Assembly: GCA_032768795.1 (NCBI GenBank)
Contig: CP136499.1
Location: 682,001 to 746,000 of the forward strand
Direction: 5' to 3'
DNA length: 64,000 bases
Source of the DNA: Tremella fuciformis
Taxonomy: Eukaryota; Basidiomycota; Tremellomycetes; Tremellales; Tremellaceae
The stretch's first letter is position 1, and each line of letters begins with the position of its first letter. The notes under the pieces are model-generated. The model saw only the letters and a list, made by a program, of their open reading frames with translations. It was not told where the DNA came from and did no database searches. The translations under genes were made by a program, and so were the position numbers. Below, piece after piece: positions 8,581 through 61,759 of the stretch.

Positions 8581-11500
8581 GCCTCCCCCCCCCCCCCTCC
8601 TCCTCCTCCTCCTCCTCCTCCTCCACCTCCTCCTCCGCCGCCGCCGCCGCCTCCTCCTCCTCCGCCCACTCCGCACGCGCCTCTCGGATCTACGATCAAC
8701 CCCGTTACACAAAGAGACCACAACGCATATCAACCTCTCTGCCTATGGGTTCAAGCATGCTCCAGTGAAAGAGCGGCTATTGAGAGCATCAACCTCCCCT
8801 ATATCCAGCACACACTGTGTCGTGCGCCCGTCGTAGAGGGCAAACGAGTCAATCTCAACTTGACGCTGACCTCTGTCGCCTCTGGAGGTCATCCTCTGAT
8901 TGTATCACTCAGGAGCGTAGAGTGGTCTTCTGCTCAGATTAGCCCTGGTGGTGGTGTGATAGCCACCACGTATTCCGGTAAAAAGTATCGTCTCTTCAGA
9001 TGCGAGCCCCTCGAGCCGAACGAGAACACCGACAGGAACAACGCCATCAGCATTGATGATGATCAACTCCAGGAGGCAAGATACATCAACATGCCCAACA
9101 GTCAGTCCCCAACACCATGCTTACTCGCACCACAATGGCCTCCGCTGATTTGCAAGTGCTCACTGAACTCTGTACCCGGTTTGGCAGAGGCAAGATATAC
9201 ACCTGGCTCGGCTCACGCACACTGGTCAGTCGTCTCCGACTCTTCTGCGGCGCCGACTGCTCCTGTGTCATGTTGAGCAGGCGTGCTGATGACAAAGGTT
9301 GCCATCAACCCATACGGACGAATTCCCTCTCTTTCTGCCGATGAATTGAGGCTCTCGCACCAACTGAAAACATCAACAGTCGCGCCCTCCTCAGCCGGTA
9401 TAGGGGAGCTTGTAAGACGGCTACACTGTTCGTCAACCACGCTGCGGGCAAGACAGCCAGCGGGGACGGGAACCAAGTAGGATTACTACTATCTCGCGAA
9501 TCGTAAGTAAACTCATCCGACGGCCCCCATGTTGGATCGTGTTGTATCGTGTGAGGCGAGGGCCAACTCGACAGGGGTGCAGGAAAGACAGTCTCTGCTA
9601 ATTTAGCAATCGTCCACCTTGCATCAAACAGCGGCAGCAACAGCGTTGGCGGCGGCGGAAAGGCCGCAGACCTGTGTCTCGCACTTAAACTTGCCGGAGT
9701 ATTACTAGCGGCATTTGGCAACGCCAGTACCGAGCGAAATGTCGACTCGTCCCGTTTCTCATTATTGACCACTGTACGCCTCTCTAGGCCCAGAATTCAT
9801 CACGCAGAGACGCTGATCAATACAGCTGGGTATAGCGGCTAGTGGGACAGTCGTGTCGGCTGCTGTCGCGGTGTACGCGCTGGAAGAGTCGCGCGTGACC
9901 CGTCAGGCGACATCACACACGGCTTTTCATATCTTTTATCTCCTAGAACGGGCAGCGCGATCATTTCCCTCGTCGTCTGCAACAACAGCAACGTCGCTCG
10001 ACGAGGCTCTGAAGCTCATAGCAAGCAAGTCGCACTTGCGTTTCATCGTCAAAAGCGAGAGTCTGCGCTCGCTACCCGAGGCGGATCGACCAAGCTTGGA
10101 AGATGCTCTGGAGATGTTCCTCCCGTCCGTCCAGACCACCCGAATCGACTCGATCCTCTGTGCTATTTTACTCCTGGGCGAAGGTATGCAGCACCTCGAG
10201 TTGGTTTGTGAGCTGCTACAGGTTGATCTGGAATCGACAAGGGAGGCGATTCTTTTCAGGCAGATGGGGGGGGGGGCAGCTACATCAACGCACCAAGGTG
10301 GATCAACAGGGTATGTGCGATAGTATGGCTAGGAGGTTGTTTGGCGGGACTTTCCGAGTGAGTTTGCCCCTTTTCGACCTCACGGCGCAAGGGCTCGCCA
10401 GCCTCCCGGCGGTGGCTGATCGGTGCTGACACTCTGGTCAATCGTGGAGCGTATCAACACGGTGTTGGAGACCAAACGTAATACCGACCAAAGCGTCATT
10501 GGCCATATCAGGCTCTGCGACGTATTCGGGTTTGAGAATCTCCCAAAGGTCGGTACAAAATCCTCTCGACTAGCTAGCTTTGCTGACAATCATCAGAACC
10601 AGCTTGACCAGTTACTCATCAATGACTCCAACGAGGTCCTACAACGGCTGGTAAGTCACCCTCAACCCCTCAGCGTCAGCTCGAAGAAAGTCTCTAATGC
10701 TGACCCACCTCCAGTTCATGAACTCGATGCTACAGGACGGCAGCGATCTACGTAGCGACAAGCAGGGCGATGAATGCTCGAGCTGGACCAGTCCGGAAAT
10801 GGTAGCCGTATTCGACTCGCTCGACAACGCCTCCCGTGGGCCCACAAGCGTTCGAAAAAAAACAGCAGCGGCGGACAGGCAGACGACAAGGCAGACCGGT
10901 TAGCGAGCATTTTCATAACCAGTCTACAACAAGCCCTCCCCCAAACAACGTTGTCGAGGACGTCGAACACCAGGTCTCGGTCGATCGTCACTTGTGTCAA
11001 CGACCCTTTTACAATCGCTCATTTCGCTGACAACGTGAACTACGATCCTACCTGTATGGTGGACGAAAACAGGGATACCTTTTCCCCTGCATTGTGCAGC
11101 ATTCTGCACAAATCGCGTTGTGCTTTCGTCGCGAGGCTGCCACTCGTCAGCACCCCCGGGCCTACTGGCGGCGGTCGCGGGGCGCAGACAGCCCGTACTG
11201 TATCAAAGAACGTTCGGCGTCCAGTGCAGGAACTCGTCAAAGTGCTCACCGCATCCATCGGACCGACTGGTACACCCACCCCACTATACTTCATACGCTG
11301 CATCAAACCAAACAAAGAGTTCAAACCCGGTGAAGCCGACAACCTGTACGTCCAGCGACAACTCGCTTCTGGAGGATTAGCGCAAGTGGCCGCTCGTCGT
11401 CTTATTGTTAGCCGGATATCGCTGGATTGTTTCGAGAGGAGGTACGGCACTTTGGCCGCACCGGAAGAGGAGGGCGTGGCGATTGATAGGCGAGAGCGTA

Positions 11501-12624
11501 TTCAAGGTATACTCGGTCTGGTGACACAATTCGACGCGCATGGTGGGGACATCGATGCCGGTGACACCGCCGACGGGTGCTCCCCTTTTCGGCTTGAGGG
11601 TTCTACTGGTACGGTCTGGGCGAAAACTAGGACCTGGAATAGACTCGATTCGGATCTGGCTCAGAGGGCGCGAGTCAAGGCTCGGCTGGATGCCGAGGTC
11701 GTGGCGCATCCAACGGCCCAGACAAAGGGCGAGGTCAAGGTCGAGAAAGAGGTCGACCGGGAGCAATGCCCAGGGCAAGACCAGCCGTCCCATGTCTTTG
11801 ACTCCACCACGCGGGTGCAGACAAAGGACGGGAAGCAGATGGTCACCCCGGCCGTCCACACCGCGGACGAGCAGTATCCGGTCCCCACGGGCAACCCAGC
11901 CCCGCCTCTGTCACTCGCCAAATGGAGAGACGACCTAGAGAAACTGGCCGACCAGCTACTCAATCGAGTACATATTGAGCGATTGCTCATCAATTGGGAA
12001 AGCCAAGCTGCTAAATGGGATCGCGTCAACGATACGCAAACCCACGACCCTTCAGCGGAGGGAGGGAGCAGCATGAGCGGTACCCAGGCTGCGCTGGAGA
12101 GGACGTGCCGGATCGTTCGAGCTCGTAGTCGCTCCCTGTCGTTATATCTCGATCTGGTTGGAGATGGAGGGGAGTCGGACGTGTTTGCGATTCTGACTCA
12201 GCTGCGCATTCTACTGCTCGACAAGTTTCGCATCAGCGCCGACCCCAGAGCGTCCGTCGCCGATGAGTATACCACTTTCGACCTAGCGACCTCTGCAGAA
12301 CTGGCCGCAGCTTGTCTCGAAATCTGGGCATGGGACGGGATCGTAGCGGGTATGCATGCCGGACCCACCAGCGCCTGTAAGTGTCTTTCGAGTATACATG
12401 AATGAGTCTGACTGACTGTGATAGCTCCAGCGAAATGCGAACAGTTTTGGGGTCTGATGAAGAGTACGTATTGGTCTTCGTCTTCTCACCTTCTTCGCAT
12501 CTTTCTCGGGTGAGTAAGCTGTGGGCTGACAGATGGTAGCGTGGGTTGTCAACTGACTTATGCCAACCCTGTCATCGGACTGCCTGTCGAATGTCTTGTG
12601 GGAAGATGCCAAGAAAGGATGTAG
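8581..12624 (+). CDS. Divergent myosin-motor gene, spliced and probably frame-broken
   Basis: Pieces in order match a myosin motor: DLQVLTELCTRFGRGKIYTW then, after a 73-nt intron (9,225-9,297), VAINPYGRIP; the FHIFYLLERA and AILLLGE blocks in 9,853-10,270; CDSMARRLFGGTF near 10,320; relay-type DVFGFEN near 10,525; NQLDQLLINDSNEVLQRL joined over an intron (10,651-10,713) to FMNSMLQDGSD; FTIAHFADNVNYDP near 11,020; and FIRCIKPNKEF near 11,290. The C-terminal exons fit introns 12,377-12,424 and 12,464-12,532, with a stop at 12,622-12,624. The P-loop position (near 9,440) reads VNHAAGKT, lacking the usual first Gly. Frame changes coincide with a G11 run (10,266-10,276) and an A8 run (10,855-10,862), so it is either decayed or carries assembly indels. 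Chitin-synthase-type motors are the nearest family I can suggest, but no synthase domain follows. The 5' start is not resolved. Confidence 0.65.
8585..8664 (+). repeat. Poly-C then CCT/CCG microsatellite
   Basis: C13 is followed by a CCT repeat with CCG units. In the frame that continues into the conserved open stretch at 8,749-9,100 it would encode a run of prolines, so it may be the coding N-terminal low-complexity part of the myosin-like gene. Confidence 0.8.
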
Positions 12625-15069: not shown

Positions 15070-15382
15070 TGTCAAGACCGGACGTAGGATAGTCCGCGTC
15101 GAGCTGGGAAGTCGAGGTTGCCTCGCAGGGAGTATGCAATCGAGTAGGGTTACTAGAAGTAGACTGAGAGTACAAGAGATACATTCGACTAGAGATCTTC
15201 TCTACTCGAATGTCTACTATATGTATTCGAAAACCGTTCAACTATACTAGACAGTCCGAGTGCCGCATTTAGCAGTTCGGCTACTTCACCCGGATGAGGC
15301 AAGTGGGCGGTTGGCTGAGTCAGGCCGTGTGGCACTTGGCCTTGTCTCATTCCGCCACAGTCTCAGTGCCACAGTCCTGACA
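15070..15382 (-). repeat. Gypsy 3' LTR (left copy)
   Basis: 313 bp with TGTCA...TGACA ends, identical by eye to 22,176-22,488. Relative to the element, which reads on the minus strand, this is the 3' LTR. Confidence 0.95.
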
Positions 15383-15386
15383 GTCG

Positions 15387-15400
15387 CCCCCCTCTTCTTT
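15387..15400 (-). promoter_or_regulatory. Polypurine tract of the Gypsy element
   Basis: On the minus strand AAAGAAGAGGGGGG lies 4 bp upstream of the 3' LTR, the expected place for plus-strand DNA priming by RNase H-resistant purines. Confidence 0.8.
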
Positions 15401-15601
15401 GATGTCGACCCGACATCCTCGGTTGTTGACATCCTTTATTCGACGTTGCGTCCTTTGGCACTGTGTGTTCGGTTCGTTGAGGTAGATGCCACGCCCGTAA
15501 GCCCGAGAGACGCCGTTGTTTACCCCTTCATGCAAGTTGTTGTTCTGGTTGTTGTGTCCGGACTTCGTCTTTCTTGAGTCGTCTTTCGTACTGTTCTCAT
15601 C

Positions 15602-17281
15602 ATGGTCGACGACGAGCTGGCCGGATTCAATGTTGAGCAGGGCATACAAGATGCCTACGATGAGGCGTATCTCGGTACGGCCTCTGCGGACGACTATCGA
15701 ATTCAACTCCAGGCCGCTCGAGAGAACCTCGAAGCGCAGCCCGAAAATGCCATTTTCAAGTTTGAGGTTGACAAGCTGGTTGCTGCGGGGAAGGCGGCTT
15801 TACGTCGAGAAAGGGATAAATCCGTGAGTCGAATGCCAGTAGACGAACTTCGAGTTAAGCTGTTAGGGTTCCTCTCCCGTAAAGTCGACTCCTGCTCGTG
15901 CTGAGTCGGTATTCCCGCCTATTCAATCGCCTTTCAAGGCTCCCCTTGCTCCCATCGGTCGTCTCTCACCCAAGAAACACATCTTGGATCCCTCTCCTAT
16001 CTCTCGTCAACCACCCTTCGGCTCGAGCAGCATTCCCGAGACACCGGCTAGTCAAAAGGGTCATGTTCATCGCCCTTTGGGCTTCCCTAAGGCCGCATCT
16101 CCGCCTGCCAAAGTCGTGTCTTCGGCTACTGAGGTCGGTCTGAGCGACTTGTTCGGCTCGGCCCCCGACTCGAGCCCGGGTCAGCCGATCCCTACTCCTT
16201 CGCCGACCAAGGCAGGTCGAACTCCTAGTGGGGTGTTCCCGAGGGTTGAAGGCGAAGAGTTGGTGGTCAAGCGTCTGAATCGCGTGTATCGGTACCCGCT
16301 GAAAGAACCGGAGGTCGTTGGACACGACGACTCGAGGATCGAGTCCTTCTACTCGTGGATCGAGTCGTACATTTCGACTCGTACTGGCGACACCGCGGAT
16401 ACCGGGTCGAACATCCTCGAAGCGCTCGACTCCGGCTCGTGGGGCGTCCTGATGGGGGCGGAGCGTTGTGCAGCCTGTGTGTCCCATAATCGCCCTCCCA
16501 TGTCGGGCTACTCGGGTCTACTCTGCGTCTGCCCGGTTGTGGAGGTCGATGGTAGGCGGTATGTGGCGCAGAAGTATGTTTTCGACTTACCGTACCCGAT
16601 TTTTGCTGACGTATAGGTGTCTTGGGTGTATGCTCAAGTCGAAACACTGCACCCTTTCGCCCAACACCGCTCTTGGGCCCCGAGCTCAACTCGTCCTCCC
16701 TGCCGACGAGGTCGTTCGTCGTAAGGGTGTTATCGCAGGGATTCACCGCCAGGCGGCAGCTCTACTTGCAGACGCGAAACCCGGTCTGGCCCGTAATGCT
16801 ATCTTGGAGATCTATAGAATCAATTACTCCGAATATCAGGTAAGTGTAGTCGGATTTTGTCTTGGTCTTGTCGAGATCTGACTTGCAGCATTTGAACCGG
16901 ACTGCATTCCGCGGCGAGTCTCAAGTCGCTCTGCTAGACTCGGGTGATCCTCCGTTGGTGTCTACACTCGACTGGAGCTCTTTGGACGACGCGATGGCCG
17001 AAGGCGCTGAGGAGGGGGTTGCGGGTCCCTCGGTGGTCGGTGGGGGTGGTTTGAAGCGGCTATTGGAGGACTCGCCCGCGCCCTCCATTCACTCGTCTCC
17101 CGACCGGCACCACTCGGTTACTCGACTTCTGTCTGCCCGAGCTGAGTCCCTCGAGTCGGAATCCAACATCCCGCACCGCACGACCCGACTGCAGACCAAG
17201 GAGAAGACTGCCAGTGAGGCGAAGGCGCCACAGCGCGCCGCGCTTGGCGCCCTCAAGACGAAGCGCGGCCGCCGCAAGTGA
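15602..17281 (+). CDS. Antisense, four-exon accessory gene inside the chromovirus
   Basis: Exons 15,602-15,823, 15,885-16,573, 16,617-16,839 and 16,889-17,281 join in phase through GT-AG introns of 61, 43 and 49 nt to give a 508-aa protein starting MVDDELAGFNVEQGIQDAYD. The ATG follows a pyrimidine-rich leader. Residues 1-74 are acidic and helical. About 75-180 is Pro/Ser-rich. A Cys cluster follows (C269, C272, C288, C290, C305, C308, C315) and looks metal-binding. The tail is acidic then basic, ending KTKRGRRK, a likely nuclear signal. It runs opposite to gag-pol and ends 32 bp from the pol stop, tail to tail. I recognise no family. It may be an accessory gene of the element or a captured host gene. 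The clean splice phases and lack of stops argue that it is under selection or newly acquired. Confidence 0.75.
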
Positions 17282-17313
17282 TTGTAGTCCAGGTTGTATT
17301 TTATGCAGAGACC

Positions 17314-20300
17314 TCATGCCGACTCCGTTCTCCAGCGCGGGGCGCGCCTTATGCGTTTCGCATCGGATACTAGGGATTCGACTTGGCTGTCCTTGATGCC
17401 CTTCATCCACGACTCGAACCGCGGGTCCCCCTTTAGAGAGTCTGTTGGTTGCCAGGTTGGTTGTTGGTACCCCTTCCATTTCACAAGGACCTGGTCCTCG
17501 AGTTGTCTTGCCTTACCCCGGGATCGTCGAGCTCGTTTCAGTACCCCTTCGACTTCGTAAAGCTCCTCCTCGCTAGTGTGTGGGGCTGGTGGCGGAGCGA
17601 CCAGCGCGGGTTGCGCTTCGACTCGAGCCCCACGAACGTGCGACAAGAGCTCTACGTTGAAGACTGGGTGAACTCGATTGGCGACCAATTCCGGAGGCAG
17701 GTCCAGTTTATATGCGTTCTCGTTTATCCTTTCTAGTATGGAGTACGGTCCTACGTGACGGTGGTCGAATTTCCTAGTCGGACGGAGCGTGCGCAAGTTC
17801 TTGCCATTTAGCCAGACTTTGTCCCCTACTTGGAAGTCCGGTGTACGTCGACGCTTATCATATTGCTTCTTCCACCCTTCTTGGGCTCTGAGCAAGTTCC
17901 CTCGTATTCGATGGTGCAGCTGTTCTAGCTGCTGAACCCGGTCGGCGGCTGCTGGAACTTGCAGGTCGGACAGGTCTCCTGGCGGATCGACTAGGGTCGT
18001 ACGATATGCTCTCCCGGTGTAGGCCTCCAGGGGGCTCATACCCAGCGAGGCGTGGTGCGTGCTATTGTAGCAGAACTCCGCGTGCGGCAGTAGGGGCACC
18101 CAATTGTCTTGTTCGAGGTTCACATAGTTGCGTAGGTACTGTTCCAGCCACTGGTTCGTTCTCTCGGTTTGTCCGTCTGTTTGTGGGTGGTATGCTGTCG
18201 AGTAGCGCAGGTTGGTTCCTAGGCCTTGGCAGAAGGCTTTCCAGAATTTGGATACGAACAGACTCCCACGATCCGACACTATGCTGTCGGGTATGCCGAA
18301 ACGAGTATATACTCTATCCGTGAAGATTTCGGACATTCCTTTAGCGGTGATCGACTTGTGACAGGGCGCGAATACTGCCATCTTCGAGAAGCGATCCACG
18401 ACAACCATGATGGAGTCGTAGGTATTCGAGGTGGGCAGGTCGACTATGAAGTCCACAGACAGGTCTGCCCATGGTCGTAGTGGCGGTTCGAGCGGTCGAA
18501 GGAGGCCGTACGGTTTCTGTCTCGAGGGCTTGTTTCTTTGGCACTTCTCGCACTCCGCCGCAGATTTCTCTACATCCGTCTTGATGTTCGGCCACCACCA
18601 GTGTTGCCTAATTGCCTGATAAGTCTTTCGGGGTCCAGGGTGACCGGCCGAGACTATATCATGATGTGCCTCGATGACCTCTGTCCGAGACTTCGAGGGA
18701 CAGTAGTATGCTTTCGAGTGTCTATAGTATCCTTGCGTGTCTTGGGTTACTTTTCCGTCCGCGATCAATGATCCTAGCTCGTCGTCCCCTTCGTACAAGT
18801 CGGACGGCGTCTTGCCCAGCAGCTGTACTTGTAGGGAGAGTAGCAACTGTTCTGAGGACAGGAGCGGTCGGAAATTGTGTCCGTTGAGTTCCTGAGACAG
18901 GCTCGTGGCTGTCGAGTCGGTGGGGAGGTAATCCGGTCTTCGACTGAGGGCGTCCGGTTTAGTACTTTGCTTCCCCAAACGATAGGAGATCTCGAAGTTG
19001 AAGTCTGCCATCATCTCTGCCCATCGTGCCTGTCGTCGGGTCAGTTGCTTGGTTGACAAGAAGGTTTCCAGGCTGCGGTGGTCGGTGAGCACTTGTGTCC
19101 GGTGTCGGGCACCTTCCAGGTAGTGTCGCCATTCCTTGAAAGCGTACACGATTGCCAAGAATTCCTTGTCGTGTATCGGGTAGTTCAACTCGGCTGGCGA
19201 CATGACTCGACTCGAATATGCGACTGGGCGCAGCCCATTCTCCCCGTCTTTCTGGGATATGACTGCCCCGATCGCGAAATCGGACGCGTCGGTCTCTACC
19301 ACGCATTCCTGGTCTGGGTCATAGTGTTTCAGGACGGGTCCGGTCGTCATTTTCGTCTTGAGCAGGTCGAACGCCGCCTGGTGCGGTTCCGACCAGGAGA
19401 ACGGGGTCGACTTCCGAGTGAGTTCGTGCAGTGGCTTAGCTACCTTGGCGAACCCTGCTATGAACCTTCGATAGAAGTTTGCAAAACCCAGGAAGGATTG
19501 GACTTCCTTGACGTTCCGAGGTGCTGGCCATGCCGACACCGCTCGCACCTTGTTCGGGTCCATCGATACGCCCTTCGGGTCGATGATGTAGCCCAGGAAC
19601 TCTACGGAGTCGGTATGGAACTGGCACTTGTCGTGTTTTGCGAACAGTTCGAATTTCCGCAGTCGTTGTAGGACTTCTTTGACGTGCCTCTCGTGCTCGC
19701 TCCGTGACTTCGAGAAGATAAGTATGTCGTCCAGATAGACTATGACGAAAATGTCCAGCACATCGCGGAATATGTGGTTCATCAAGTGTTGGAATGAGGC
19801 TGGGGCATTCGTGAGGCCGAATGGCATCACTCGGTACTCGAACAGCCCGAACCGAGTTCTGAATGCGGTTTTCCATTCTTCCCCGGCGGCGATCCGGAGG
19901 AGGTTGTACGCGCCACGTAGGTCTATTTTTGAGTAGATAGTGGCCGCACGGAGTTGGTCTAGTAGATCTCCGATCAACGGTAGGGGATAACGGTTCTTGA
20001 CGGTTATGTTATTCAACTTGCGGTAGTCCACGCAGAGGCGTAAGGATCCGTCTTTCTTCTTTACGAATAAAATTGGCGAGGCCGCTGGCGACTCCGAAGG
20101 TACGATAAAGCCTTTCTTGAGGTTCGTATCCAAGTAGTCTCGGAGGGCCTCCTGTTCGGTCACGGACAGCGAGTAGATCGGGCCGAATGTCGGCTCAGCG
20201 CCGTCGAGTAGCGGGATGCGGTGGTCGAAAGGCCTATGAGGAGGTAGCTTGGTGGCCTCCGACTCCGAGAAGACATCCAGGAACTCGTGGTATTCCGTAG

Positions 20301-20856
20301 GTACCACTTCCTCCATCCGAGGTGGGTCCACGGAGATGGCTCGTAGGTAGATCGCCCCCTTGGGTTCGTCCGTAATCTGTTCGAATGCCTCGGCCGAGAT
20401 GAGGGAGATTGCTTTTAGTTTTCCCGACTTGCCCTGGTGTGATCTCGAGGGAGGAGGTTGAATGGCCAGGTTATCCCAGTCGAGCGTTGGCTTGACTTCT
20501 TTGAAGAATGGCGCCCCAAGGATGATGGGGCCCACATCTAGTCTGGCGACCAGAAATGTAGCTGTGTAAGGCTGGAACCCTTCCCCTAGCAAGAGGGTGA
20601 GGGTACCCTCTTGTTCGATAGCGCTGCGGGAGCCATCCGCTAATCGTAGGGTCTGTTTGATTCTAGAAGGGCGCAATTCGAGTTTCGACTCGATGGCGTA
20701 GGTTTTCTCTATAAAGTTCCGGGAGGCCCCGGTGTCGAGCAGCGCTCGGGAGACTAGTGATTGTTTGTTTGCGATCGCGACAGGTATATGGAAAAGGTCT
20801 GGGGTATCAGGAATAGCTGGCGTCGAGATTGGGAGTGCGGCGAAGGTGGCGGTCAC
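17314..20856 (-). CDS. Gypsy chromovirus Pol polyprotein
   Basis: About 1,180 aa, uninterrupted, counted from 20,856. In order: aspartic protease with DTGAS at about 41-45; reverse transcriptase with YLDD at 374-377 and VDYRKLNNI upstream; RNase H (VVETDASDFAIGA); integrase with an HHCC finger (H...H...CEKC) and a DDE core (DLSVDF, SDRGSLF, QTDGQTERTN); a GPY/F-type stretch (HVGPYSILERI); and a chromodomain at about 1,100-1,142 (YEVEGVLKR...VLVKWKGY). There is no ATG at the 5' end: the frame is open upstream into gag and overlaps it by one base at GCGTGACC, lying in the -1 frame, so ribosomal frameshifting or another recoding event is likely. The chromodomain would direct integration to particular chromatin. 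All catalytic residues checked are present. Confidence 0.95.
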   Translation of the reverse strand: MTATFAALPISTPAIPDTPDLFHIPVAIANKQSLVSRALLDTGASRNFIEKTYAIESKLELRPSRIKQTLRLADGSRSAIEQEGTLTLLLGEGFQPYTATFLVARLDVGPIILGAPFFKEVKPTLDWDNLAIQPPPSRSHQGKSGKLKAISLISAEAFEQITDEPKGAIYLRAISVDPPRMEEVVPTEYHEFLDVFSESEATKLPPHRPFDHRIPLLDGAEPTFGPIYSLSVTEQEALRDYLDTNLKKGFIVPSESPAASPILFVKKKDGSLRLCVDYRKLNNITVKNRYPLPLIGDLLDQLRAATIYSKIDLRGAYNLLRIAAGEEWKTAFRTRFGLFEYRVMPFGLTNAPASFQHLMNHIFRDVLDIFVIVYLDDILIFSKSRSEHERHVKEVLQRLRKFELFAKHDKCQFHTDSVEFLGYIIDPKGVSMDPNKVRAVSAWPAPRNVKEVQSFLGFANFYRRFIAGFAKVAKPLHELTRKSTPFSWSEPHQAAFDLLKTKMTTGPVLKHYDPDQECVVETDASDFAIGAVISQKDGENGLRPVAYSSRVMSPAELNYPIHDKEFLAIVYAFKEWRHYLEGARHRTQVLTDHRSLETFLSTKQLTRRQARWAEMMADFNFEISYRLGKQSTKPDALSRRPDYLPTDSTATSLSQELNGHNFRPLLSSEQLLLSLQVQLLGKTPSDLYEGDDELGSLIADGKVTQDTQGYYRHSKAYYCPSKSRTEVIEAHHDIVSAGHPGPRKTYQAIRQHWWWPNIKTDVEKSAAECEKCQRNKPSRQKPYGLLRPLEPPLRPWADLSVDFIVDLPTSNTYDSIMVVVDRFSKMAVFAPCHKSITAKGMSEIFTDRVYTRFGIPDSIVSDRGSLFVSKFWKAFCQGLGTNLRYSTAYHPQTDGQTERTNQWLEQYLRNYVNLEQDNWVPLLPHAEFCYNSTHHASLGMSPLEAYTGRAYRTTLVDPPGDLSDLQVPAAADRVQQLEQLHHRIRGNLLRAQEGWKKQYDKRRRTPDFQVGDKVWLNGKNLRTLRPTRKFDHRHVGPYSILERINENAYKLDLPPELVANRVHPVFNVELLSHVRGARVEAQPALVAPPPAPHTSEEELYEVEGVLKRARRSRGKARQLEDQVLVKWKGYQQPTWQPTDSLKGDPRFESWMKGIKDSQVESLVSDAKRIRRAPRWRTESA

Positions 20857-22127
20857 GCTGAGGCGTACCTCGCCGCCGCGGGGCTGGGGTACGCCAACTT
20901 GTTTTCCGAATCGTCTTTGTCGAATTTCGTATGATCGAGGTTGGCGTTCGCATTCGGTGATTCGTGTCTAATACCATTGAGGCGGACTGCGTTCGCCCCC
21001 GATGCAGGGCTGTTTCGAGGAGCTCGCGTTTTCGGGGCCGTGGGGCAGTTGGCTACAATGTGATCCGGGCTCTCACAGTATAGACACAGGTTTTTGTCCA
21101 TCCGTCGCTGTCTTTCGCTGGGCGAGATCCTACCCCTCGAGTGTCCGTCGTCCTTCCGATATCTCTGGTTGGTCGGGGGTCGAGAGGGCGGATTCGGGGA
21201 TCGAACGTAGTCCCTCGAAGGTCTGTCGGCGCGGTCGCGAGAGTGAGTTGTCGCCGGCGCCTCGCCGAACCTTTTCGAGGTAGCTCGCTCCGGCTCGCGC
21301 TGCAGCAAGTTGTTGCGGACACTGTCCTGCTGTACATTGAGACGAATCGCTACGTCCGCCAGCTCTTTTAGGGATCTGGGCTCGTGCTCGCGATTCGCTA
21401 TGGCCAGGCGGATCTCGGGTCGCAGACCCGACTCGAACATGTCTCGTAGGCTACGGTCCTCATACTCCACATCGGCTGAGATCGCCAGGAATCGTGCATA
21501 GTATTCCGAGACCGTGCGGGTTTGCGACAGTTTTTTGAGTCGCTGCACCGCAATTCGGTGTCTATCCGGGTCGCCGAACATGTCCTGTAACTCGGAAATG
21601 AAATGGTCCAAGTCGGAGCAAAAAAGGGGTTGTTCGATTTTCGGCCTGTTGAAGTACGGTTCCCACCAACGAAGGGCATTCCCCCGTAGGTAGGATGCCG
21701 CCCAAATGACTTGCCTCCGCGAGTCCAGGCCACCGCCTTGCATGCTAAGGTACATTCGTACCTGGGTAATGTATTGCGGTAGCTTATCGCGGTCACCGTG
21801 ATATTCATCTGGGGGGTTCACCTTGAAGGATCTCGTCGCGTTCAAAATCCTCTGAGCGGACTCGAGCGGCGAGTGGTCGTGGTCGAGATCCGTGTCCGTG
21901 ATCTCTTCCAGGGGTGTACCTTGCGCGGCTCCCGTGTGATGAGTGGTTGCCGGGGTGGCCCGTTCGGCCAATGCGAGACGGGCGGCCGCTAGGGCCGAGT
22001 CGCTCTGCTCCTTGGCTTGGCGAAGCTCGAGTATCTGACGTCGGAGTTCCTCAACCTCCGTAGGAGTGTCGAGGTCCTCCGAGTCCGGGTCGACATGCGA
22101 CCGTAGTTGGCGAGTGGAAGCACTCAT
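20853..22127 (-). CDS. Gypsy chromovirus Gag
   Basis: 424 aa from the ATG at 22,127 (MSASTRQLRSHVDPDS). An in-frame codon at 22,181 lies inside the LTR and is unlikely to be the start. Residues about 25-60 form a heptad-like, Glu/Leu-rich coiled coil. The central part matches the Ty3-type capsid (ALRWWEPYF, SEYYARFLAIS, MFESGLRPEIR). A CCHC zinc knuckle (CLYCESPDHIVANC) occupies about 348-361, followed by a Ser/Pro/Asn-rich tail. The TGA stop overlaps the pol frame. Only about 48 bp separate the start from the 5' LTR, so the leader is very short and holds the primer-binding site. Confidence 0.92.
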   Translation of the reverse strand: MSASTRQLRSHVDPDSEDLDTPTEVEELRRQILELRQAKEQSDSALAAARLALAERATPATTHHTGAAQGTPLEEITDTDLDHDHSPLESAQRILNATRSFKVNPPDEYHGDRDKLPQYITQVRMYLSMQGGGLDSRRQVIWAASYLRGNALRWWEPYFNRPKIEQPLFCSDLDHFISELQDMFGDPDRHRIAVQRLKKLSQTRTVSEYYARFLAISADVEYEDRSLRDMFESGLRPEIRLAIANREHEPRSLKELADVAIRLNVQQDSVRNNLLQREPERATSKRFGEAPATTHSRDRADRPSRDYVRSPNPPSRPPTNQRYRKDDGHSRGRISPSERQRRMDKNLCLYCESPDHIVANCPTAPKTRAPRNSPASGANAVRLNGIRHESPNANANLDHTKFDKDDSENKLAYPSPAAARYASA

Positions 22128-22158: not shown

Positions 22159-22173
22159 TAGTCGAATGTATCT
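22159..22173 (-). promoter_or_regulatory. Candidate self-priming primer-binding site
   Basis: Two bases inside the 5' LTR, the minus strand reads AGATACATTCGACTA. The LTR itself contains the exact 15-nt complement (minus strand TAGTCGAATGTATCT at 22,283-22,297). If transcription starts at 22,297, the RNA 5' end can fold back on this site and prime, as known for Tf1/sushi elements. A tRNA primer was not identified. Confidence 0.6.
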
Positions 22174-22175
22174 AA

Positions 22176-22488
22176 TGTCAAGACCGGACGTAGGATAGTC
22201 CGCGTCGAGCTGGGAAGTCGAGGTTGCCTCGCAGGGAGTATGCAATCGAGTAGGGTTACTAGAAGTAGACTGAGAGTACAAGAGATACATTCGACTAGAG
22301 ATCTTCTCTACTCGAATGTCTACTATATGTATTCGAAAACCGTTCAACTATACTAGACAGTCCGAGTGCCGCATTTAGCAGTTCGGCTACTTCACCCGGA
22401 TGAGGCAAGTGGGCGGTTGGCTGAGTCAGGCCGTGTGGCACTTGGCCTTGTCTCATTCCGCCACAGTCTCAGTGCCACAGTCCTGACA
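22176..22488 (-). repeat. Gypsy 5' LTR (right copy)
   Basis: 313 bp, identical by eye to 15,070-15,382. It is the promoter-bearing LTR for gag-pol on the minus strand. Confidence 0.95.
22324..22328 (-). promoter_or_regulatory. TATA-like box in the 5' LTR
   Basis: ATATA on the minus strand lies 27-31 nt upstream of position 22,297, the start of the sequence that is complementary to the primer-binding site. Its distance fits a TATA box for that start. Confidence 0.45.
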
Positions 22489-47340: not shown

Positions 47341-50182
47341 TCATAGGGGACATGGGTGGCGATGTTGCCGTTCCTGACAGAGTGGAAGCTCGGATTCAGC
47401 CCATAAGAGGCCATTGCCGGTGTCATAGCCTAGCCAATCAGCTTCAAGCAGCCGCCAGGCTGTGGCGATCTCTGAGTGGCAGAGACTCACCGGTGTTGCT
47501 CCCCAATGACCTGTGCTCGCCATCCATGGCCCTGTGCTTCCCATCCAAGAGCTGCTCGACACCATCCTAGCCCTGGTTGTCACTGTCTCCGTCTCCATCG
47601 CTGTCCTCTCGGTCTCCTTGGCCGTCATGGCCTCCATGAAGGTCTGAGGTGTCGATTCGAGGCTGACCAGTCGCTTTCGAGTCTCGCTCTGCTGCTCGTC
47701 ATCGGCCTGGGCGTCCTCCCCCGCCTCCCAAGCGTCGCAGCGCACGGTCCAAGCGTCCTCATCGCGGGTCTTGAGTTCCCGGCCGGTGTGGCAGTTCTTG
47801 GGGAGGTGTCGCTTGGGGCAGAAACAGCATTTCCGTCTCCCTTTCCTCTTTCCCAGCTGCTTCTCTGCTCGGGTATGTAGCCGCCCTGTGTTGCTGTCGA
47901 TGTCCGCTAATACCTGGGTGGCTGTGCTCCTTTCCCCTCTCCTGGGACTGCGATCTCGCACCGGACGATCATCGAACATTTGGGTAGCAAGGATGGCGGT
48001 AGGGCTGTCGGCAGGGCTGTCGGCAGGGATAGGGTCATCTTGGATGGGCTGGGAGGCCGTTTGGGTGGCGGTGAGAGGTACCTGAGTGGCAGAGATCGAT
48101 TCCTGGGCCGCTGCAGCAGCCCGCCGCTCTGCTCGGAAGCGATTCTGCCGTAAATGCGGATCACGAACGACATTGGTGTCGTTATCGATCTCCCATTCGG
48201 GTCCTGAGAGCTGATGGACGGCAACCGTCCCTCCTGGGATGCCGTCGGTGACCGCAGTGGTGATGGCGGCCACGGTGTCGTCCCAAATGCCTGGGTTCAC
48301 CAGCCGCCAGTGACGATCTATCGCGACGATCGATACCAAGCGATTCATGTTGCCTGCGAAGTGATGGGCGCACGGAAGACCGTATGACTGATAGAAGCGG
48401 CCTGTGCACTCGGGCTTGCTGTCGGGATCGGTCTCCCAAGCCTTGGCTCGCTGGTATTGGGCTGTCATAAGGGACAGAGCAGTCCAGGAAACTCGTTGTC
48501 GGAGCTTGTCGAAAGTCCGCAGCAGGCGGCTCTGACGTCGCAGGCGTTGTCGTCCCATCTTGCCTAGGATCGAGCTGACCTGCTCCGACATGAACATCTT
48601 GGCGTGCTCGAGGACGTGGTAGAGATCGTTGTGGGCCCCTTGTAGCTCTCTCTTGAATGACCGATGAGCGCCTTCGAGACGAGAATTCGAGGTCTGACCG
48701 AGATGGGGATGATGGTCGATGTAGGCAGCGACGAAGAGCTCTTTGATGTCGTCCACCATCGTTTGTATGTAAGCATTGGCTCTGTCATACCGCTCCCCAG
48801 CCCATCGACTGCAAAGGGTAGCGAGGCCGTCGGCTAGGGCGTCTTCGGAGCCTGCTTTGGCGATGTCGGCCAGCCAGAAGTTGCCATAGGCCGAAAGCTT
48901 CTCCTTCCAGCCCTCAAGATCGGCAAAGCAGGGCTTGGCAGCGAGCTTGATGTTCTCTCGCAGGTGCCAGCGACATGACAGGCGTTTGACGTGAGGTAAG
49001 AGGCAATCGATGGCGTTGGTGAGGGCGTCCTCGCGATCGGTAATGATGACCTTGATCTCCGTCCTGACGATCCCAATGAGGTCGAGGAAGGCCGCGATGG
49101 CGAGATCATACCACTGCTCGGCCCCGCGCGACAGGAAGCCGATGGCGGCGGTGTAGGTCTGGTTGGTGGCGGTGAAGCCGCAAATGTGAAGCATCGGTAG
49201 CCGATAACGGTTCGTTCGGAAGGTGCAGTCGATGAAGAGGACTGTCGGGTACATGTGTATCATTGCACGGGCTTCGGCGGTGGTGAAGACGAGTCCGCAG
49301 AGCTGCCCAGCCTCATTCTTCCAGGCCTTGAACAAGTCGCCGTTGTCCTTCAGACGCTCGACTGCAGCCTCGGTGGCGCTTCGCCCCGCCCGCAGCGACG
49401 CTTCGTAATGATGTCGGATGTTGCGGACATCGTTACGAGTGACGAGGGCAGCGGGATGCTCGGTCTGAATGAGGCGGACAATCTGGGACACCTCGAGGCG
49501 GGCGTTGATATGTCGATGGATCGCTTCTTGTATCTCGGCTGTGCGACTCATGCGGCGGAGGTAGGCAATGTCGATACCTCGTTGAGGTTCATGGTTGTGG
49601 GTGTTGTGGACGACGTGAGGGTACCAAAGGCGTTTGTCCCGGGTGCGGCCGCCTCGTTGTGCGTCCTCGATGGTCTCTCGCCGCCATTGGACAGCCCACT
49701 GACAGTCACACTTGGAGGTATGACTGTTCTCCACCGGATCGCCTGAGATGGGCTTGGCATGATGGTGACCAGCCCGACCGCCCCTAACACATGTCATAAG
49801 ACATCGACCAGTCTCCACAGAGCTCCGGGCTGTCACCGCGCAGAAGTCGGCAGCCAAAGCGAGCTGTTGGGTGAGGCGCTGAGAGGCGCTGAGAGGCAGA
49901 GATCGACGACTGGGGCTCGAACGGCAAGGGAGGATGGGTGAGGATAGGCTGGGCGGCATGAGGTGGCTGGTCATAGAGCTCGTCCTCGAGACCACTCAAG
50001 TCTCGGTCGGACTGAGAATCGTCACCGAGCCGTGAGATGTCCTCGATGTCGTCCTCGATGTCGGTATCCTCATGTTCCGAGTCGGAAGAGAGAGAGTGGA
50101 CGTCTCTGAGCGGGGTGTCGTCTTTGGGAAGGGTGTCATCGACGAAAAAGGTGCTGGGGCAAGGTAAACCGGATGTTGACAT
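47341..50182 (-). CDS. MULE transposase, one N-terminal frameshift
   Basis: The long frame (49,995-47,341) carries, counted from 49,995, the DDE-type residues D256 (LFIDCTFRTNRYR), D320 (IITDREDAL) and E441 (SRLEGAHRSF), a SWIM-like finger (ECTGRFYQSYGLPCAHHFA) and a C-terminal CCFCPKRHLPKNC knuckle. The natural start is probably the ATG at 50,182 (MSTSGLPCPSTFFVDDTL, acidic), in another frame. A 10-bp tandem duplication, GAGGCGCTGA twice at 49,873-49,892, separates the two frames; with a single unit they would be continuous, as the other copies imply. Unless translation starts internally, this copy makes no full transposase, though it needs only one change to be intact. Everything else looks undamaged. 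Confidence 0.88.
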
Positions 50183-50736: not shown

Positions 50737-53039
50737 CGATATCTTACGTAAGACTTATGGCACTCTGGTTTCCCTTAGTGGCGATACACGGAGATCGGGC
50801 CTCTCGCCGCGCAGCACGTACACGATTATCATTTGGGAGCTCCTTACCTGACCATCCCACCTTCTTTCCGCCTTCATCTGCGCCGCCCTGATCCGGCCCG
50901 TCATGGTCATGACCTGGTGACTCATGCCCATATCCCAGCCTCGATACATCTTATGAGGGCGAACCCGGGCAAAACCGGCCATGTTCAAGCTCATACCGCT
51001 CATTGGGGCCGTGTCGTGTCGCCCCCAAAAGCAATGTATCTTCCGGCCAAGCGCGTCCGACCATCCCCGGACCAGCCTCATCGGCCTGTATCCGATCGAG
51101 GTCCTCGCATAGTACTCAAGATCGCGCTCTTTTCTGAGCCCGCTGTGAGGCGTACACCTACCTTGGTGTCGTAGGTCGGCTGGGCAAGTGGGAGGCGAAG
51201 CAAAAGGCAGGCGCGTCAGCGTTGTACAACGAGGCAGTCGCTTCACATCAAGTTGTCGCGAGCGTGGGCGTGATATATCAGCAATGGTCTCTGAAGCCAG
51301 GGTGAGCAGATTCCGGTCAGCTCAGAGTCCCGCGATCGCTGATGAAGTTGGCGTTTCTGTGGATGGCCGTATTGAATGCAAGCCAGCCTCATGCGACTCA
51401 CAAGTCGAGGCGGCCGCCGCCTACGGTGGGAATGAGTCGCCGCTTCGCTTGGCGTCTTGCGACATAACCCCTCGGTCCGGCTATCTCGGCGGATCTGGAT
51501 TGAAATACGACGACGTCCCGCCCATGAACGATTAGGAGCACGGGCAAGAGGCCTTCAATGCCGGTCTCGTTATCGCAGGTGCGTCCCGAACCACGAGGAC
51601 TAGTTGCTGAGAGGCAGAACCCGATGTTGGAAACGCCTTCAGCATCGTACTCGTCCACGCAATTCTATCGAGAAAAACGAAAATGGACTACCATCTTTGC
51701 CTTCTCTGGTGATGGTCAGGTCAGCTCGCATTGCAACCTGGCTGAACCTCACTGAAAAAGCAGACCACCGGACGCGGCATGGCGCCAGCCTTGTATCGCA
51801 TCAAATTTTGAGCGCCCCATCGGTCCCGGACCCCTCGGAGCGACAACGAGCTCATGACTGCACTTTGCGATCCGGGGATTGAGCTGTGCCGGTTTGAGGC
51901 TCTCAAGGCCGGGCTGCCGCAGACCAATTGCGAGAGGCTTTCAGTCGTCGAGCAAAGGTGCCTTTGGGGAGAGAGAGAAAGAGAGCGAGGTCGCCCAAAG
52001 AAGCGGATCCCTTTCTCTCCGACAGAGACAGCGCCCGATCGGGCAAATGTGGGCTTAACGCGCCGCTACCTTCGCCGCCCTCAAATGGACCGACAAACCG
52101 TCGGCGATCGCGAACCGCAAACGTCCCAGGCCGTTCCCGGAATCTCGTGCAGGTGTCGAGGCTCACGCCGGCTTTACCGCAGTTGGGGTGGTCATCTTGG
52201 CCTTTGAGCAGACTGATGTAACAACGAGACATCGGCATCGCCGGGCGTGCAGGTGGTGCCCGAGGGGAGCGAAGAGAGGAGCCGGTTGACGAGATTCACT
52301 GCCCGTCCTGACTGGGCAACGCAGGAACAGGTCAGCGAGACAGAGGAGAAGAAGCCCAATGGTCTAAATCAACGATCCATGAGGTCTGAACCGGATGGAC
52401 GATTTGCTGGCGTTGGGTCCGGATGATCCCGCGCGTCCGGACTATGCTTGGCGACCCACATCGTGAGCTTCTGCTCTCGGCGCAGATTTTGCAGTTTCTC
52501 AATGATCATGTGAGTGGCCCTGCCCATCGATCGGCATGTCTGACGACCAGACCGCCAAGGACAAATGCGTCTTCCTCTCCAATGTTGTCCTGGTCATCAC
52601 CAAACCTCTGATCATCCATGGGATCTACGCCAACCTGGACATGCAGTTCCTTGTAAAATTGGTCACAATCTCTTCACCTTGCTCATGGCTTGTAGAGCAC
52701 TGCAAGCGGGATCGAGTCTTGCGATACGGGTCAACGACACCGGAGCCGCGGTCTTCTATTCCGCCCAGGCCGGTGTGTTGCCTGATCGTCTTGGAGACTG
52801 TCAAGACCAGTCGTCTCGCAACTGGAAGGCCGACCTGCCCCCAAACAGCTTGCAGCTCCCTTCGAATGTGTCGGTCGCTTCGCCAAGACCAGCGTGACGA
52901 GACACCTGTTCATCCCAGCCGAAGAGCCCGGACCGGTCTCGACTTTGCCTTCCTCCTCTCTCTCATCCACTTTGGTGACAACGTCCCAAACGCTATGTTC
53001 CCAGATGTGCTGTCGACCGTATGACACCACGTCAAGTCT
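50737..53039. other. No gene recognised
   Basis: About 2.3 kb of unique-looking sequence. Short frames on both strands overlap without domain or splice support. A minus-strand frame at 50,755-51,246 and plus-strand frames at 52,423-52,900 were examined and not accepted. Confidence 0.4.
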
Positions 53040-53190
53040 TTTGACGGGCTGTACGCCATCGACAAAGTGCTCGAGCGCTTTCCCGAACATGCCAGCGCAC
53101 GCTCATGATCGACACCGCTGCCGCAGGACGCCAGGACGAATGTAAAGGACATCCCAGCCGCATTGACGCCTTATCAAGAGTTCCTCACAT
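53040..53190 (+). pseudogene. Copia reverse-transcriptase fragment
   Basis: A plus-strand stretch reads DGLYAIDKVLERFPEHASARS, then STPLPQDARTN and TPYQEF, matching the minus-strand relic at 37,650-37,860 (AYIDRAFERFPEHAS, STPLPQDART, TPYQELVG). A stop lies between the blocks. It is a small isolated piece of the same Copia family. Confidence 0.6.
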
Positions 53191-54046
53191 CCGAAGAGCG
53201 ACAGCGAGGAGGATGCGCTCTCATTCTCGGTGCACCATCCATCCTTCGTCTCTGATTGTCACTCTTGACTTCACAGAGGATTGGACACGCGGAGTTACAG
53301 ACGAGCTGCTGGACTCTCGACGAGCTGCTGGACTCTCGACGAGCTGGGGCGGGGGGGCCAGGTACAGCCCGTGGCAGCGCCGCAAACGTAACACTTCTGC
53401 TTATGCCCTGCTCCGCCGAGGTGACTGCACGGCCGATCGTCCTGCTGACACCCGTGACACCGTCGACTACCGGTCAGCGGTGCAAGCGAACGCTCTCTTG
53501 CAAGATCGGGGGTATTCTGCCCGGCAAAAGGGCACAGGCTTGGTAGAGACCACCCGTCCGGCTTCGGAGAGGATACCCATCATTTTGCCTCACGCTCTGC
53601 AAGCTTGCTTGCATGGACTTGAGCGCTGTCACTGGGAGGACATATGTGTACACACTTGCAAATGACACTGCCAAAGTTGCAGATGTATGCATGTAGTATC
53701 GCAGGGGTCGAGATCGCGCGTGTGCGGGAGTGATCCCAACGAAGCCCGTCTCCGCAAAGCCACTGCCGGCAAAATGAGGTGGAGCCCAGTGGAGAATGCG
53801 ATCCGTTTGACTACCGAAAGTAGGGTATTCGAGTACTAAGGGCCTGCGAATCAGTCTCATCAGTCTCACATCGAACGGACGTACAGTACCGAAGAATGCT
53901 CTGTCTAGCGCATTCTTGCACCCCTTCCGGGGTCTCTCACGGAAAGGCGAGCCGAGTCTACGCTCAACGACCCGACGAGGCTCGTCGAGCCTTTGCCCCT
54001 CGCATCCCCTCATTCGCTACTGCTCTCGCAGATGCGACGCCCCCGT
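53191..54046. other. No gene recognised
   Basis: A short tandem duplication (GAGCTGCTGGACTCTCGAC twice, about 53,305-53,345) is present. No protein-coding frame is supported. Confidence 0.4.
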
Positions 54047-54893
54047 CTACTTTCGGCAACGCGTCCTCGACATCTCCCAGGCCAAGGTACCAAGAGCAGA
54101 CGGACCGAAGACGAGACGAGTAAATGCCGGTGGGAGGGGTGTGACGACGGCATCTGGCTGAGGCGAGAGATATGCTGGGACGACGGAGTGCGGGCTAGAT
54201 GGGGAGGAGATGCAGCGTCGACGGCGAGGGATAAGTAAAGGAGTCGGGGAGCGCGAGGTCGAGCGCGGGGGGACCGGTCGTGGAGAAAGGGGAGATGAAG
54301 GGGGAAGGCGGAGATCGGGGGACGCGGTTCTTCCGACCCCTTGCGAGGACCGAGGAGAACGAGAAGATGGCAGTTTGAATGGAAGCGAAAGAGCTTCACG
54401 AAACCGCCAGCGAGGGACGGAGAAGCTGGACTCCTCGATGTAGCGGATGGCGGACTCGGGTACCTCAACGACCTGACGCGGATGCCGCCCATGCCCTGCT
54501 AGCAACATCTCTGCGTTGAGGTCGGCCACTGAGCGCAGGGCCCCGGTGGGACCTGCTGGATTAGTCTGACCGCTTCCACGAGTTGGCAAGTACATACGGC
54601 TGGCCGCGACGCTCTTGAAGCTTGACCACTCCAACTCTTCGATATCGTCCGCCCCGTCCCCAGTGGAGCTAGGCGCGGGCGAGCTTGGAAGAACCGCCCT
54701 CGTTGGTCCAGCGCGAGCGGTAGGTGCGATGGGGTTCGACAAGGAGGAACACAGCGATAAGGCAGGCAATGGAGTGAAAGTGGACGACCGCGGAGGATGA
54801 GCTTGAGAGTCGGATCGGTGGGGTTGGAAAACATCAAGACCTGGGAGACGAGTGGCCCCGACGAGGGGATCATACAGGATGCGGGCGGGTCAT
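54047..54893 (-). CDS. Hypothetical Ser/Pro-rich protein, probably spliced
   Basis: A minus-strand frame of about 240 codons ends at 54,047. A clean 42-nt intron candidate (GTATGT...CTAATCCAG, about 54,560-54,601) removes 14 codons in phase, between SSFKSVAAS and GPTGALRSVADLNAEM. The C-terminal 120 residues are rich in Ser, Pro and Arg. A likely start is the ATG at 54,893, followed by a GTATGA donor after six codons. The frame linking the first and main exons is not settled. No domain is recognised; low complexity makes chance open reading possible. Confidence 0.35.
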
Positions 54894-55532
54894 GGCGGTG
54901 GACAGGAGCATGAGGGCGCTTGACGACGAGAGTAGGCAACACAACTTTTCACGACCGTTTGCCGTTGCCTAGCGTCGGCGTGAACGCATGATGCTAAACA
55001 AAGCTAACAGTGTAGGCCTTTGCTCGCGGACCAAAGGTGGCACGCGATTTTTTCCCTTTTCGATCAGTCCATTCGATCAGTCCATTCGTACTGTAACTAT
55101 TCGACTGTCATTGCTCTCGCCGTTGTACTTGCACTCACGATGCGATCGCCTGCAGAGCTCAGCTGCCACAGAGGACCTCGCCCAAGGGTTTCGAATGGTC
55201 TCGAATAGTCTTTATGTCTTACGCTTGACTGATCCTGATCTGACGACTGCTCACCGATACGAGAAGCAATGGTCGTCGAGCACACGCAATGTTTGTGCAT
55301 GTACTGTCATGATCTGCAAAGCTACATTCTATTTGCTAAAATGGGGAGACATGCATCTTCTCGCCGTTATCGTTCCTCAACCAACCAATAGAAGCACCTA
55401 CGGTAGCGAGCTTCAAGATGTTGCTCATGATGTTGTCTGCTGCCTCCTGCCGCCGAGCCGGCTCCATGCCCAGGGAAAGTAATGTCGGGAGATGGCTCGA
55501 ATAGACCTGCTGACTTCTTGAAGCCGCGACTG
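54894..55532. other. Intergenic between two divergent or adjacent small genes
   Basis: Plus-strand frame 54,988-55,482 is open for 164 codons but has no recognisable feature and unconvincing composition. Nothing else is seen. Confidence 0.4.
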
Positions 55533-60025: not shown

Positions 60026-60218
60026 TGGGAGAGAGCTCGCCATAGTAGGATGATCAAGTTGAGCGCTGTCAAGCCGCAAGGCGCGCCAAGCAGATCGACA
60101 TGTGGCGAGAAGAGCTGCATCATGAGAAACAGCCGAAAATCGCTGCCTGGGGTTGGCAGGTACAGCTCACACACACCGCGTATTAAGCTCGAGCTGATTG
60201 ATCTAGGTCAACATTGAC

Positions 60219-61690: not shown

Positions 61691-61759
61691 CTCCACGTAG
61701 GACCAGTCTGCCAGCTCATTTCCAGGCATGGTGTACGTGATCACAGGGAGGAGCCGATA

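What the first reader, a model, noticed from the sequence alone, without database searches (positions are those of the whole stretch)
15602..17281. A spliced gene carried antisense inside an intact chromovirus
Between pol and the 3' LTR of a complete, young Ty3/Gypsy element lies an opposite-strand gene with four exons and three short introns that join in phase to 508 codons. Its product has a seven-Cys cluster (C269 to C315) and a basic tail, and I recognise no family. Antisense genes are known in a few plant LTR elements. An intron-bearing one, tail to tail with pol, would be unusual in a fungal chromovirus: introns in an antisense gene survive retrotransposition because they are not removed from the sense genomic RNA. 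It could regulate the element, act in trans, or be a captured host gene.
Basis: partly seen in the sequence, partly recalled or inferred. Interest (0 to 1): 0.88.

Follow-up and report, generated by a model that had tools for sequence, protein, structure and literature searches.

The report
Antisense cysteine-rich gene in fungal retrotransposons
A young fungal retrotransposon carries, on its opposite strand, a real, intron-containing and selectively maintained gene for a cysteine-rich protein, and similar backward genes sit at the same place in five other retrotransposon families of the same genome.

Summary
The window has an intact Ty3/gypsy element on the minus strand (313-nt LTRs, 0 mismatches, target repeat GCGAC) with a four-exon plus-strand gene between pol and the 3' LTR. 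My preferred model gives 514 residues, not 508. Against the C9 copy (89% identical element) dN/dS is 0.15 in this frame only, splice dinucleotides are kept, and the only indels are 7 nt in intron 1 and 3 nt in exon 4. 14 of 17 copies read through without interruption.
It is not a one-off: opposite-strand Cys genes lie just past pol in six families of this genome, at 86 of 103 pol matches found, none on the same strand. 17 matches, including three whole families, show none by similarity.
An antisense gene in a fungal chromovirus is already known (Boty brtn, Botrytis), so the kind is known; introns, paired-Cys core and breadth are not described in the papers I could search. Best reading: an accessory protein, probably nuclear and nucleic-acid-binding, made from the element's own spliced antisense mRNA and regulating the element. 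Transcription, zinc binding and function are untested.

The parts
15070..15382 (-). 3' LTR of the element
   Evidence: 313 nt, identical to the other LTR; target repeat GCGAC
15383..15402 (-). polypurine tract next to the 3' LTR (read on the minus strand AAAGAAGAGGGGGGCGAC)
   Evidence: by eye
15383..15601 (+). leader of the antisense gene, presumed to hold its promoter (no promoter was tested)
   Evidence: 12.3% divergent from L054 (27 of 219)
15602..15823 (+). antisense gene, exon 1
15824..15866 (+). intron 1 (43 nt; 50 nt in L052 and L054)
   Evidence: GT and AG in 15 of 16 aligned rows, L050 deleted there
15867..16573 (+). antisense gene, exon 2; first part of the Cys cluster
16574..16616 (+). 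intron 2 (43 nt), inside the Cys cluster
   Evidence: GT and AG in 16 of 16 rows; donor hexamer differs in L044, L045, L054
16617..16839 (+). antisense gene, exon 3; second part of the Cys cluster
16840..16888 (+). intron 3 (49 nt), GTAAGT...CTGAC...CAG
   Evidence: GT and AG in 16 of 16 rows
16889..17281 (+). antisense gene, exon 4, basic tail and stop codon
17314..20967 (-). pol open frame (protease-like, RT, RNase H, integrase, chromodomain-like end), 1217 residues, tail to tail with the antisense gene
   Evidence: 32 nt between the two stop codons
20853..22127 (-). gag, 424 residues, overlapping the pol frame in another frame
   Evidence: (PF03732, 46.9 bits, cut-off 24.1)
22159..22173 (-). 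15 nt beside the 5' LTR complementary to the element's own LTR (22283-22297): likely self-priming site
   Evidence: longest in 200 shuffled LTRs was 11
22176..22488 (-). 5' LTR of the element

Best explanation
The locus is a third, accessory gene of a recently mobile fungal chromovirus. It is read from the strand opposite gag-pol, from a promoter of its own between the 3' LTR and the start codon; the host splices three short introns, and the product is a protein of about 514 residues. A paired-cysteine core (CX2CX15C...CX2CX6C, probably metal-binding) and a strongly basic tail suggest a nuclear nucleic-acid-binding protein that regulates the element, for example its sense transcription, RNA handling or pre-integration complex. 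The introns persist because the genomic RNA carries only their unspliceable complement. A similar gene sits in the same place in five other families, so it is an old part of this lineage. Shown by sequence: gene structure, selection, position, recurrence. Inferred: antisense transcription and splicing in the cell, metal binding, nuclear location, regulatory role.
For: Frame-specific purifying selection (omega 0.152 with L054, 0.148 with L052, 0.156 with L053). Splice dinucleotides kept in every aligned row that has the site. The two indels with L054 are intronic (7 nt) or a whole codon (3 nt). Uninterrupted frame in 14 of 17 copies. Identical LTRs in 12 of 12 copies with both LTRs in the fetched stretch, matching 5-nt flanks in 9 of 12: two subfamilies moved recently with the gene. 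Opposite-strand Cys genes past pol in families A, B, C, D, G, H: 32 of 38 pol matches and 54 of 65. Splice models with 1-3 introns for genes of B, C, G. Core similarity beyond Cys-fixed shuffles (at most 1 of 500) in 9 of 28 pairs, including A-C1, A-G, A-H.
Against: No RNA or protein data. No homologue of known function. Families E, F, I and one C-like copy show no such gene by similarity, so it is not universal or diverges beyond recognition. 14 of 28 core pairs are no better than Cys-fixed shuffles (more than 14 of 500). Exon 4 against L052 is 10/2/4 by codon position, not third-position rich. Introns and leader change less than synonymous sites, so something besides the protein may be under selection. 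The core model is too weak to support a fold (mean pLDDT 64).
Confidence: 0.55

Rival explanations
1. The antisense transcript rather than the protein does the work: it pairs with the sense RNA and feeds host RNA interference or hinders sense transcription, limiting the element; the protein is secondary.
For: Antisense RNA would be complementary to about 1.7 kb of the genomic RNA. Introns (15 of 108 sites) and leader (27 of 219) change less than synonymous sites. PMC7264820 proposes this for plant antisense ORFs (part 2 read).
Against: Codon-position pattern, omega 0.15 in one frame only, and indels that respect the protein.
Confidence: 0.2
2. A captured host gene, carried by the element and used by it or merely hitchhiking.
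For: Introns of ordinary fungal type; a self-contained gene on the opposite strand.
Against: Genome searches gave only copies beside pol or a few stray or decayed matches (5 of 64 entered matches had no listed pol alongside; L055 and the window relics). Recurrence in six families argues for long residence. Very divergent progenitors would be missed.
Confidence: 0.12
3. An env-like or structural gene: the product joins the particle rather than regulating.
For: Position between pol and the 3' LTR is that of env-like ORFs.
Against: Opposite strand, Cys core and basic tail; no transmembrane test was run.
Confidence: 0.05
4. Fortuitous open frame or artefact of gene modelling.
For: Nine in-phase splice combinations exist in the window alone.
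Against: as above.
Confidence: 0.03

Closest known systems
brtn of Boty-like elements (Botrytis cinerea, Sclerotinia; Zhao et al. 2011 Virology, not held, seen only through PMC7264820, PMC4227169, PMC5987419 and PMC8365987)
   Same: Antisense gene between pol and 3' LTR of a fungal chromodomain-bearing gypsy element.
   Different: I saw neither its sequence nor its gene structure, so homology and introns could not be compared.
Plant antisense ORFs: Grande gene23, RIRE2, Retand TRP28 genes (PMC7264820 parts 1-2; PMC11963269 passages)
   Same: Same position and orientation, present in most copies, conserved; Grande GENE23 is reported nuclear and transcribed from its own promoter.
   Different: No TRP28 (PF04195) match here. 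The papers' read parts do not describe spliced versions: PMC11963269 has 0 uses of intron.
HBZ, the antisense gene of HTLV-1 (mentioned in PMC11963269 passages; its splicing and bZIP nature are recalled)
   Same: Antisense accessory gene near the 3' LTR; nuclear regulator: a functional parallel.
   Different: Different protein type and host; no sequence relation claimed.
Zn2Cys6 (GAL4-type) zinc clusters, CX2CX6CX5-12CX2CX6-8C (recalled)
   Same: Two CX2C...C half-sites; family G reads CX2CX6CX11CX2CX5C.
   Different: No Pfam Zn_clus match. Linkers 21-22 in C1 and B1; the window protein reads CX2CX15CXCX14CX2CX6C.
DUF3716 (PF12511)
   Same: Weak matches of B2 (E 0.21) and C2 (E 0.053) over their Cys cores.
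   Different: Below the curated cut-off of 22 bits; none for the window protein (E up to 1).

Membership tests
Ty3/gypsy LTR retrotransposon | LTRs, target repeat, gag, and pol order RT-RNase H-integrase | tested here: met
Chromovirus | Chromodomain at the C-terminal end of integrase | tested here: inconclusive
   PF00385 E 0.0011, 19.2 bits, under the cut-off 25.1 for the window pol; family G pol passes with 38.6 bits
Antisense extra ORF between pol and 3' LTR (as in Grande, Retand, Boty) | Opposite strand, between pol and 3' LTR | tested here: met
   86 of 103 pol matches
Antisense extra ORF between pol and 3' LTR (as in Grande, Retand, Boty) | Kept in most copies and conserved like the other genes | tested here: met
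   14 of 17 copies uninterrupted; omega 0.152 against pol 0.083 and gag 0.084
Antisense extra ORF between pol and 3' LTR (as in Grande, Retand, Boty) | Transcribed from its own antisense promoter; product nuclear (Grande) | not testable with these tools
   needs RNA and localisation data
BRTN family | Sequence similarity to BRTN | not tested
   BRTN sequence not available; paper not held
TRP28 (PF04195) proteins of Retand | Pfam match | tested here: not met
   no match for the window protein at E up to 1, nor for seven relatives' pieces at E up to 10
Zn2Cys6 (GAL4-type) zinc cluster | Pfam Zn_clus match and CX2CX6CX5-12CX2CX6-8C spacing | tested here: not met
   no match; spacings differ
DUF3716 | Match above the curated cut-off | tested here: not met
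   none; B2 and C2 below cut-off

The most novel reading that the evidence does not exclude
An intron-bearing antisense gene for a paired-Cys, zinc-cluster-like protein is an ancestral third gene of a broad clade of fungal chromoviruses, kept between families whose pol proteins share only about 36-52% identity, present as two genes per element in families B and C, and acting in trans on the element much as HBZ does for HTLV-1.
Probability: 0.42. Interest if true: 0.8.

Novelty: new variant of a known kind. Interest (0 to 1): 0.62.

Why it matters
Ty3/gypsy elements are usually described as gag-pol machines, with antisense extra genes recorded for some plant families and for Boty. If most chromovirus families of a fungus carry an intron-bearing antisense Cys-rich gene, element annotation has been missing a gene class, and a fungal host offers a tractable system for the open question of what such genes do. 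The introns give a clean marker: spliced reads would prove antisense transcription from an element.

Tried and rejected
Homologues: Pfam (and 104 for family H), PDB sequences and the protein database (7996 candidates scored, none at E <= 0.001) gave none of known function. IMG/VR scans found nothing: one search used only two patterns, both from the N-terminus; one search used six patterns of pol. DUF3716 was followed in the own genome (two places, C1:3911081 over the cut-off, C3:10140 below; neither is among the antisense genes listed) and dropped. Structure of the family C core: mean pLDDT 64, no PDB match at E <= 0.001. Papers: searches showed no description of an intron-bearing or Cys-rich antisense gene in a fungal LTR element; most subscription papers are not held, and I judged by listings and passages. 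Genes 1 and 2 of family C are no more alike than shuffles, so duplication is not shown. Two scripts ended in an error after printing part of their results (at gag of L052, repeated).

Full report
WHAT IS THERE. The element lies on the minus strand between LTRs 15070-15382 and 22176-22488 (313 nt, identical, target repeat GCGAC), with gag 20853-22127 and pol 17314-20967. The plus-strand gene 15602-17281 lies between pol and the 3' LTR; 32 nt separate the two stop codons. It needs three introns. Nine splice combinations keep the frame in the window alone, so the choice rests on comparison. In the 16-row alignment (window and 15 copies; L053 left out because of its insertions) GT and AG are kept in 15 of 15 rows that have intron 1 (deleted in L050), 16 of 16 for intron 2 and 16 of 16 for intron 3; the donor hexamer varies in L052 (intron 1) and in L044, L045 and L054 (intron 2). 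Intron 1 is 43 nt here and 50 nt in L052 and L054. This choice is a judgement, not a proof.

IS IT A GENE. The own genome (28.1 Mb, 11 contigs, unnamed; fungal by my inference from intron style and elements) holds 17 places of this region: 12 at 99-100% over the full length, the window included, two at 93-94%, one at 86%, two broken by an indel. I fetched the 16 others. The antisense frame is uninterrupted in 14 of 17; the exceptions are L050 (deletion), L051 (435-nt insertion) and L053 (20-nt duplication in exon 3, and an insertion in the leader). Against L054 (C9 copy; 89.4% over 7.4 kb) the antisense gene has dS 0.455, dN 0.069, omega 0.152 over 512 codons; pol has 0.083 and the part of gag compared (375 codons) 0.084. 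Against L052 and L053 omega is 0.148 and 0.156. Substitutions fall 48/28/135 over codon positions; bootstrap omega 0.111-0.207; the five wrong frames give 0.29-2.36 with 8-23 stops. The only indels against L054 over 15383-17313 are 7 nt in intron 1 and 3 nt in exon 4. Against this reading: exon 4 compared with L052 is 10/2/4, not third-position rich, and introns (15 of 108) and leader (27 of 219) change less than synonymous sites (133.5 of 391), which is unexplained.

RECENT MOVEMENT. In 12 of 12 copies with both LTRs in the fetched stretch the LTRs are identical, L054 included; 9 of 12 have matching 5-nt flanks (L041, L050 and L054 differ). So two subfamilies appear to have moved recently with gene and introns in place; conversion between LTRs is the alternative. 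The pol frame has an internal stop in L050.

RECURRENCE. The window's pol found 38 scored matches of 460 candidates. Beyond pol I could read other families in part: B (L056), C (L057), D (L058) and G (nested in L052); H lies in L051. Each has opposite-strand Cys frames. Splice models: B1 204 residues, two introns; B2 287, two; C1 150, one; C2 194, one; G 556, three; for D none joined the two Cys halves; H was not modelled. Genome searches with these proteins and with G pol (65 matches from 64 scored of 438 candidates) allow a count. For one search I entered 17 places of A, 3 of 4 rows, 5 of 5, 19 of 38 rows (the other rows are the other half of the same genes) and 2 of 7: an opposite-strand gene follows pol by 36-1640 nt at 32 of 38 matches. 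For one search I entered 64 of 66 rows (the two weakest left out): within 2.5 kb at 31 of 32 G, 23 of 23 H and 0 of 10 I matches. Together 86 of 103, same strand 0. At least one element is counted twice (C9:97060 and C9:98833), and copies within a family are not independent, so the weight rests on six families. The 17 without: C6:1519610, C1:713699 and C10:39678 are pol pieces lacking the 3' end; C2:1059671 (C-like), C5:2330394 (E), C2:2362815 and C1:6242444 (F) and the ten I matches show none by similarity (with the H protein also gave none beside I), and I could not read them. In one search, 5 of the 64 entered antisense matches had no listed pol alongside, one of them the window relic. A decayed relative at 44% identity (C10:634930-635501) also sits tail to tail with a pol relic (40% over pol residues 1134-1217).

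THE PROTEIN. Cys spacing: window CX2CX15CXCX14CX2CX6C; B1 CX2CX6CX22CX2CX6C; C1 CX2CX6CX21CX2CX6C; B2 and C2 CX2CX9CX8CX2CX6C; G CX2CX6CX11CX2CX5C; H CX2CX6CX10CX2CX4C. A strict pattern chosen after seeing these (CX2CX6C, 5-30 residues, CX2CX5-8C) occurs four times in 151,851 bases (window and 12 loci): three in antisense genes (B1, C1, G) and one in a G-like relic of the window; a looser pattern eight times, two of them (window 36138 and L057 523) outside such genes; 20 Markov shuffles of the window gave 0 and a mean of 0.05. Neither pattern catches the window protein or H. Six Cys are invariant among C1, B1, G and H. Local scores reach at most 1 of 500 Cys-fixed shuffles in 9 of 28 pairs (A-C1, A-G, A-H, B1-C1, C1-G, C1-H, B2-C2, B2-H, G-H), 5-14 of 500 in 5 pairs (A-B1, B1-D, B1-H, B2-G, C2-G) and more in 14, among them A-D, A-B2, A-C2 and C1-C2. 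The A-C1 relation was first seen in a genome search (E 0.011, 26%) at a place that proved to lie beyond a pol (C5:1497304-1500591). So A, B1, C1, G and H are probably one family; B2 and C2 a second type perhaps linked through H; D is unresolved. Omega is lowest at residues 201-260 (0.046) and 331-400 (0.056). The tail is basic (pI 12.0).

HOW IT MOST LIKELY WORKS. Antisense mRNA from a promoter beside the 3' LTR, host splicing, and a probably nuclear metal-binding protein that regulates the element. Only structure, selection, position and recurrence are shown; the rest is inference. HBZ and GENE23 are functional parallels, not relatives.

WHAT IS KNOWN. [quoted passage not shown] PMC4227169 (passages) gives Boty-like elements a CHROMO domain and brtn; PMC5987419 and PMC8365987 (passages) mention BRTN. 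PMC11963269 (passages) describes antisense TRP28 genes in Retand. The fungal surveys PMC3248453 and PMC2864245 use the word antisense 0 times; PMC12810828 (passages) gives no antisense gene for TCN3. Hence a known kind and, as far as these searches show, a new variant.

Noticed in passing
window 53295-53501 (-); by eye about 52900-54950: Decayed relative of the family G antisense gene (41%; Cys core 53364-53459) without a gypsy pol found beside it.
   Followed up: partly
window 61744-61869 (+): Short relic of the window's own antisense gene type (60%, one stop), beside Argonaute-like frames at about 60200-61560 and a LINE-like RT at 62238-63460 (both named by eye only, frames).
   Followed up: no
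window 22159-22173 and 22283-22297: 15-nt complementarity between the site next to the 5' LTR and the LTR itself, suggesting Tf1-like self-priming.
   Followed up: partly
window 47344-49995 (-): 884-residue MULE transposase frame (PF10551).
   Followed up: partly
window 10774-12402 (+): Part of a myosin-like gene (PF00063) beside the element.
   Followed up: partly
L039, L052: Family A copies interrupted by family G elements (pol at C6:1498942 and C1:736501), so G moved after some A insertions.
   Followed up: partly
15824-16888 introns and 15383-15601: Introns and leader diverge less than synonymous sites between subfamilies; cause unknown.
   Followed up: partly
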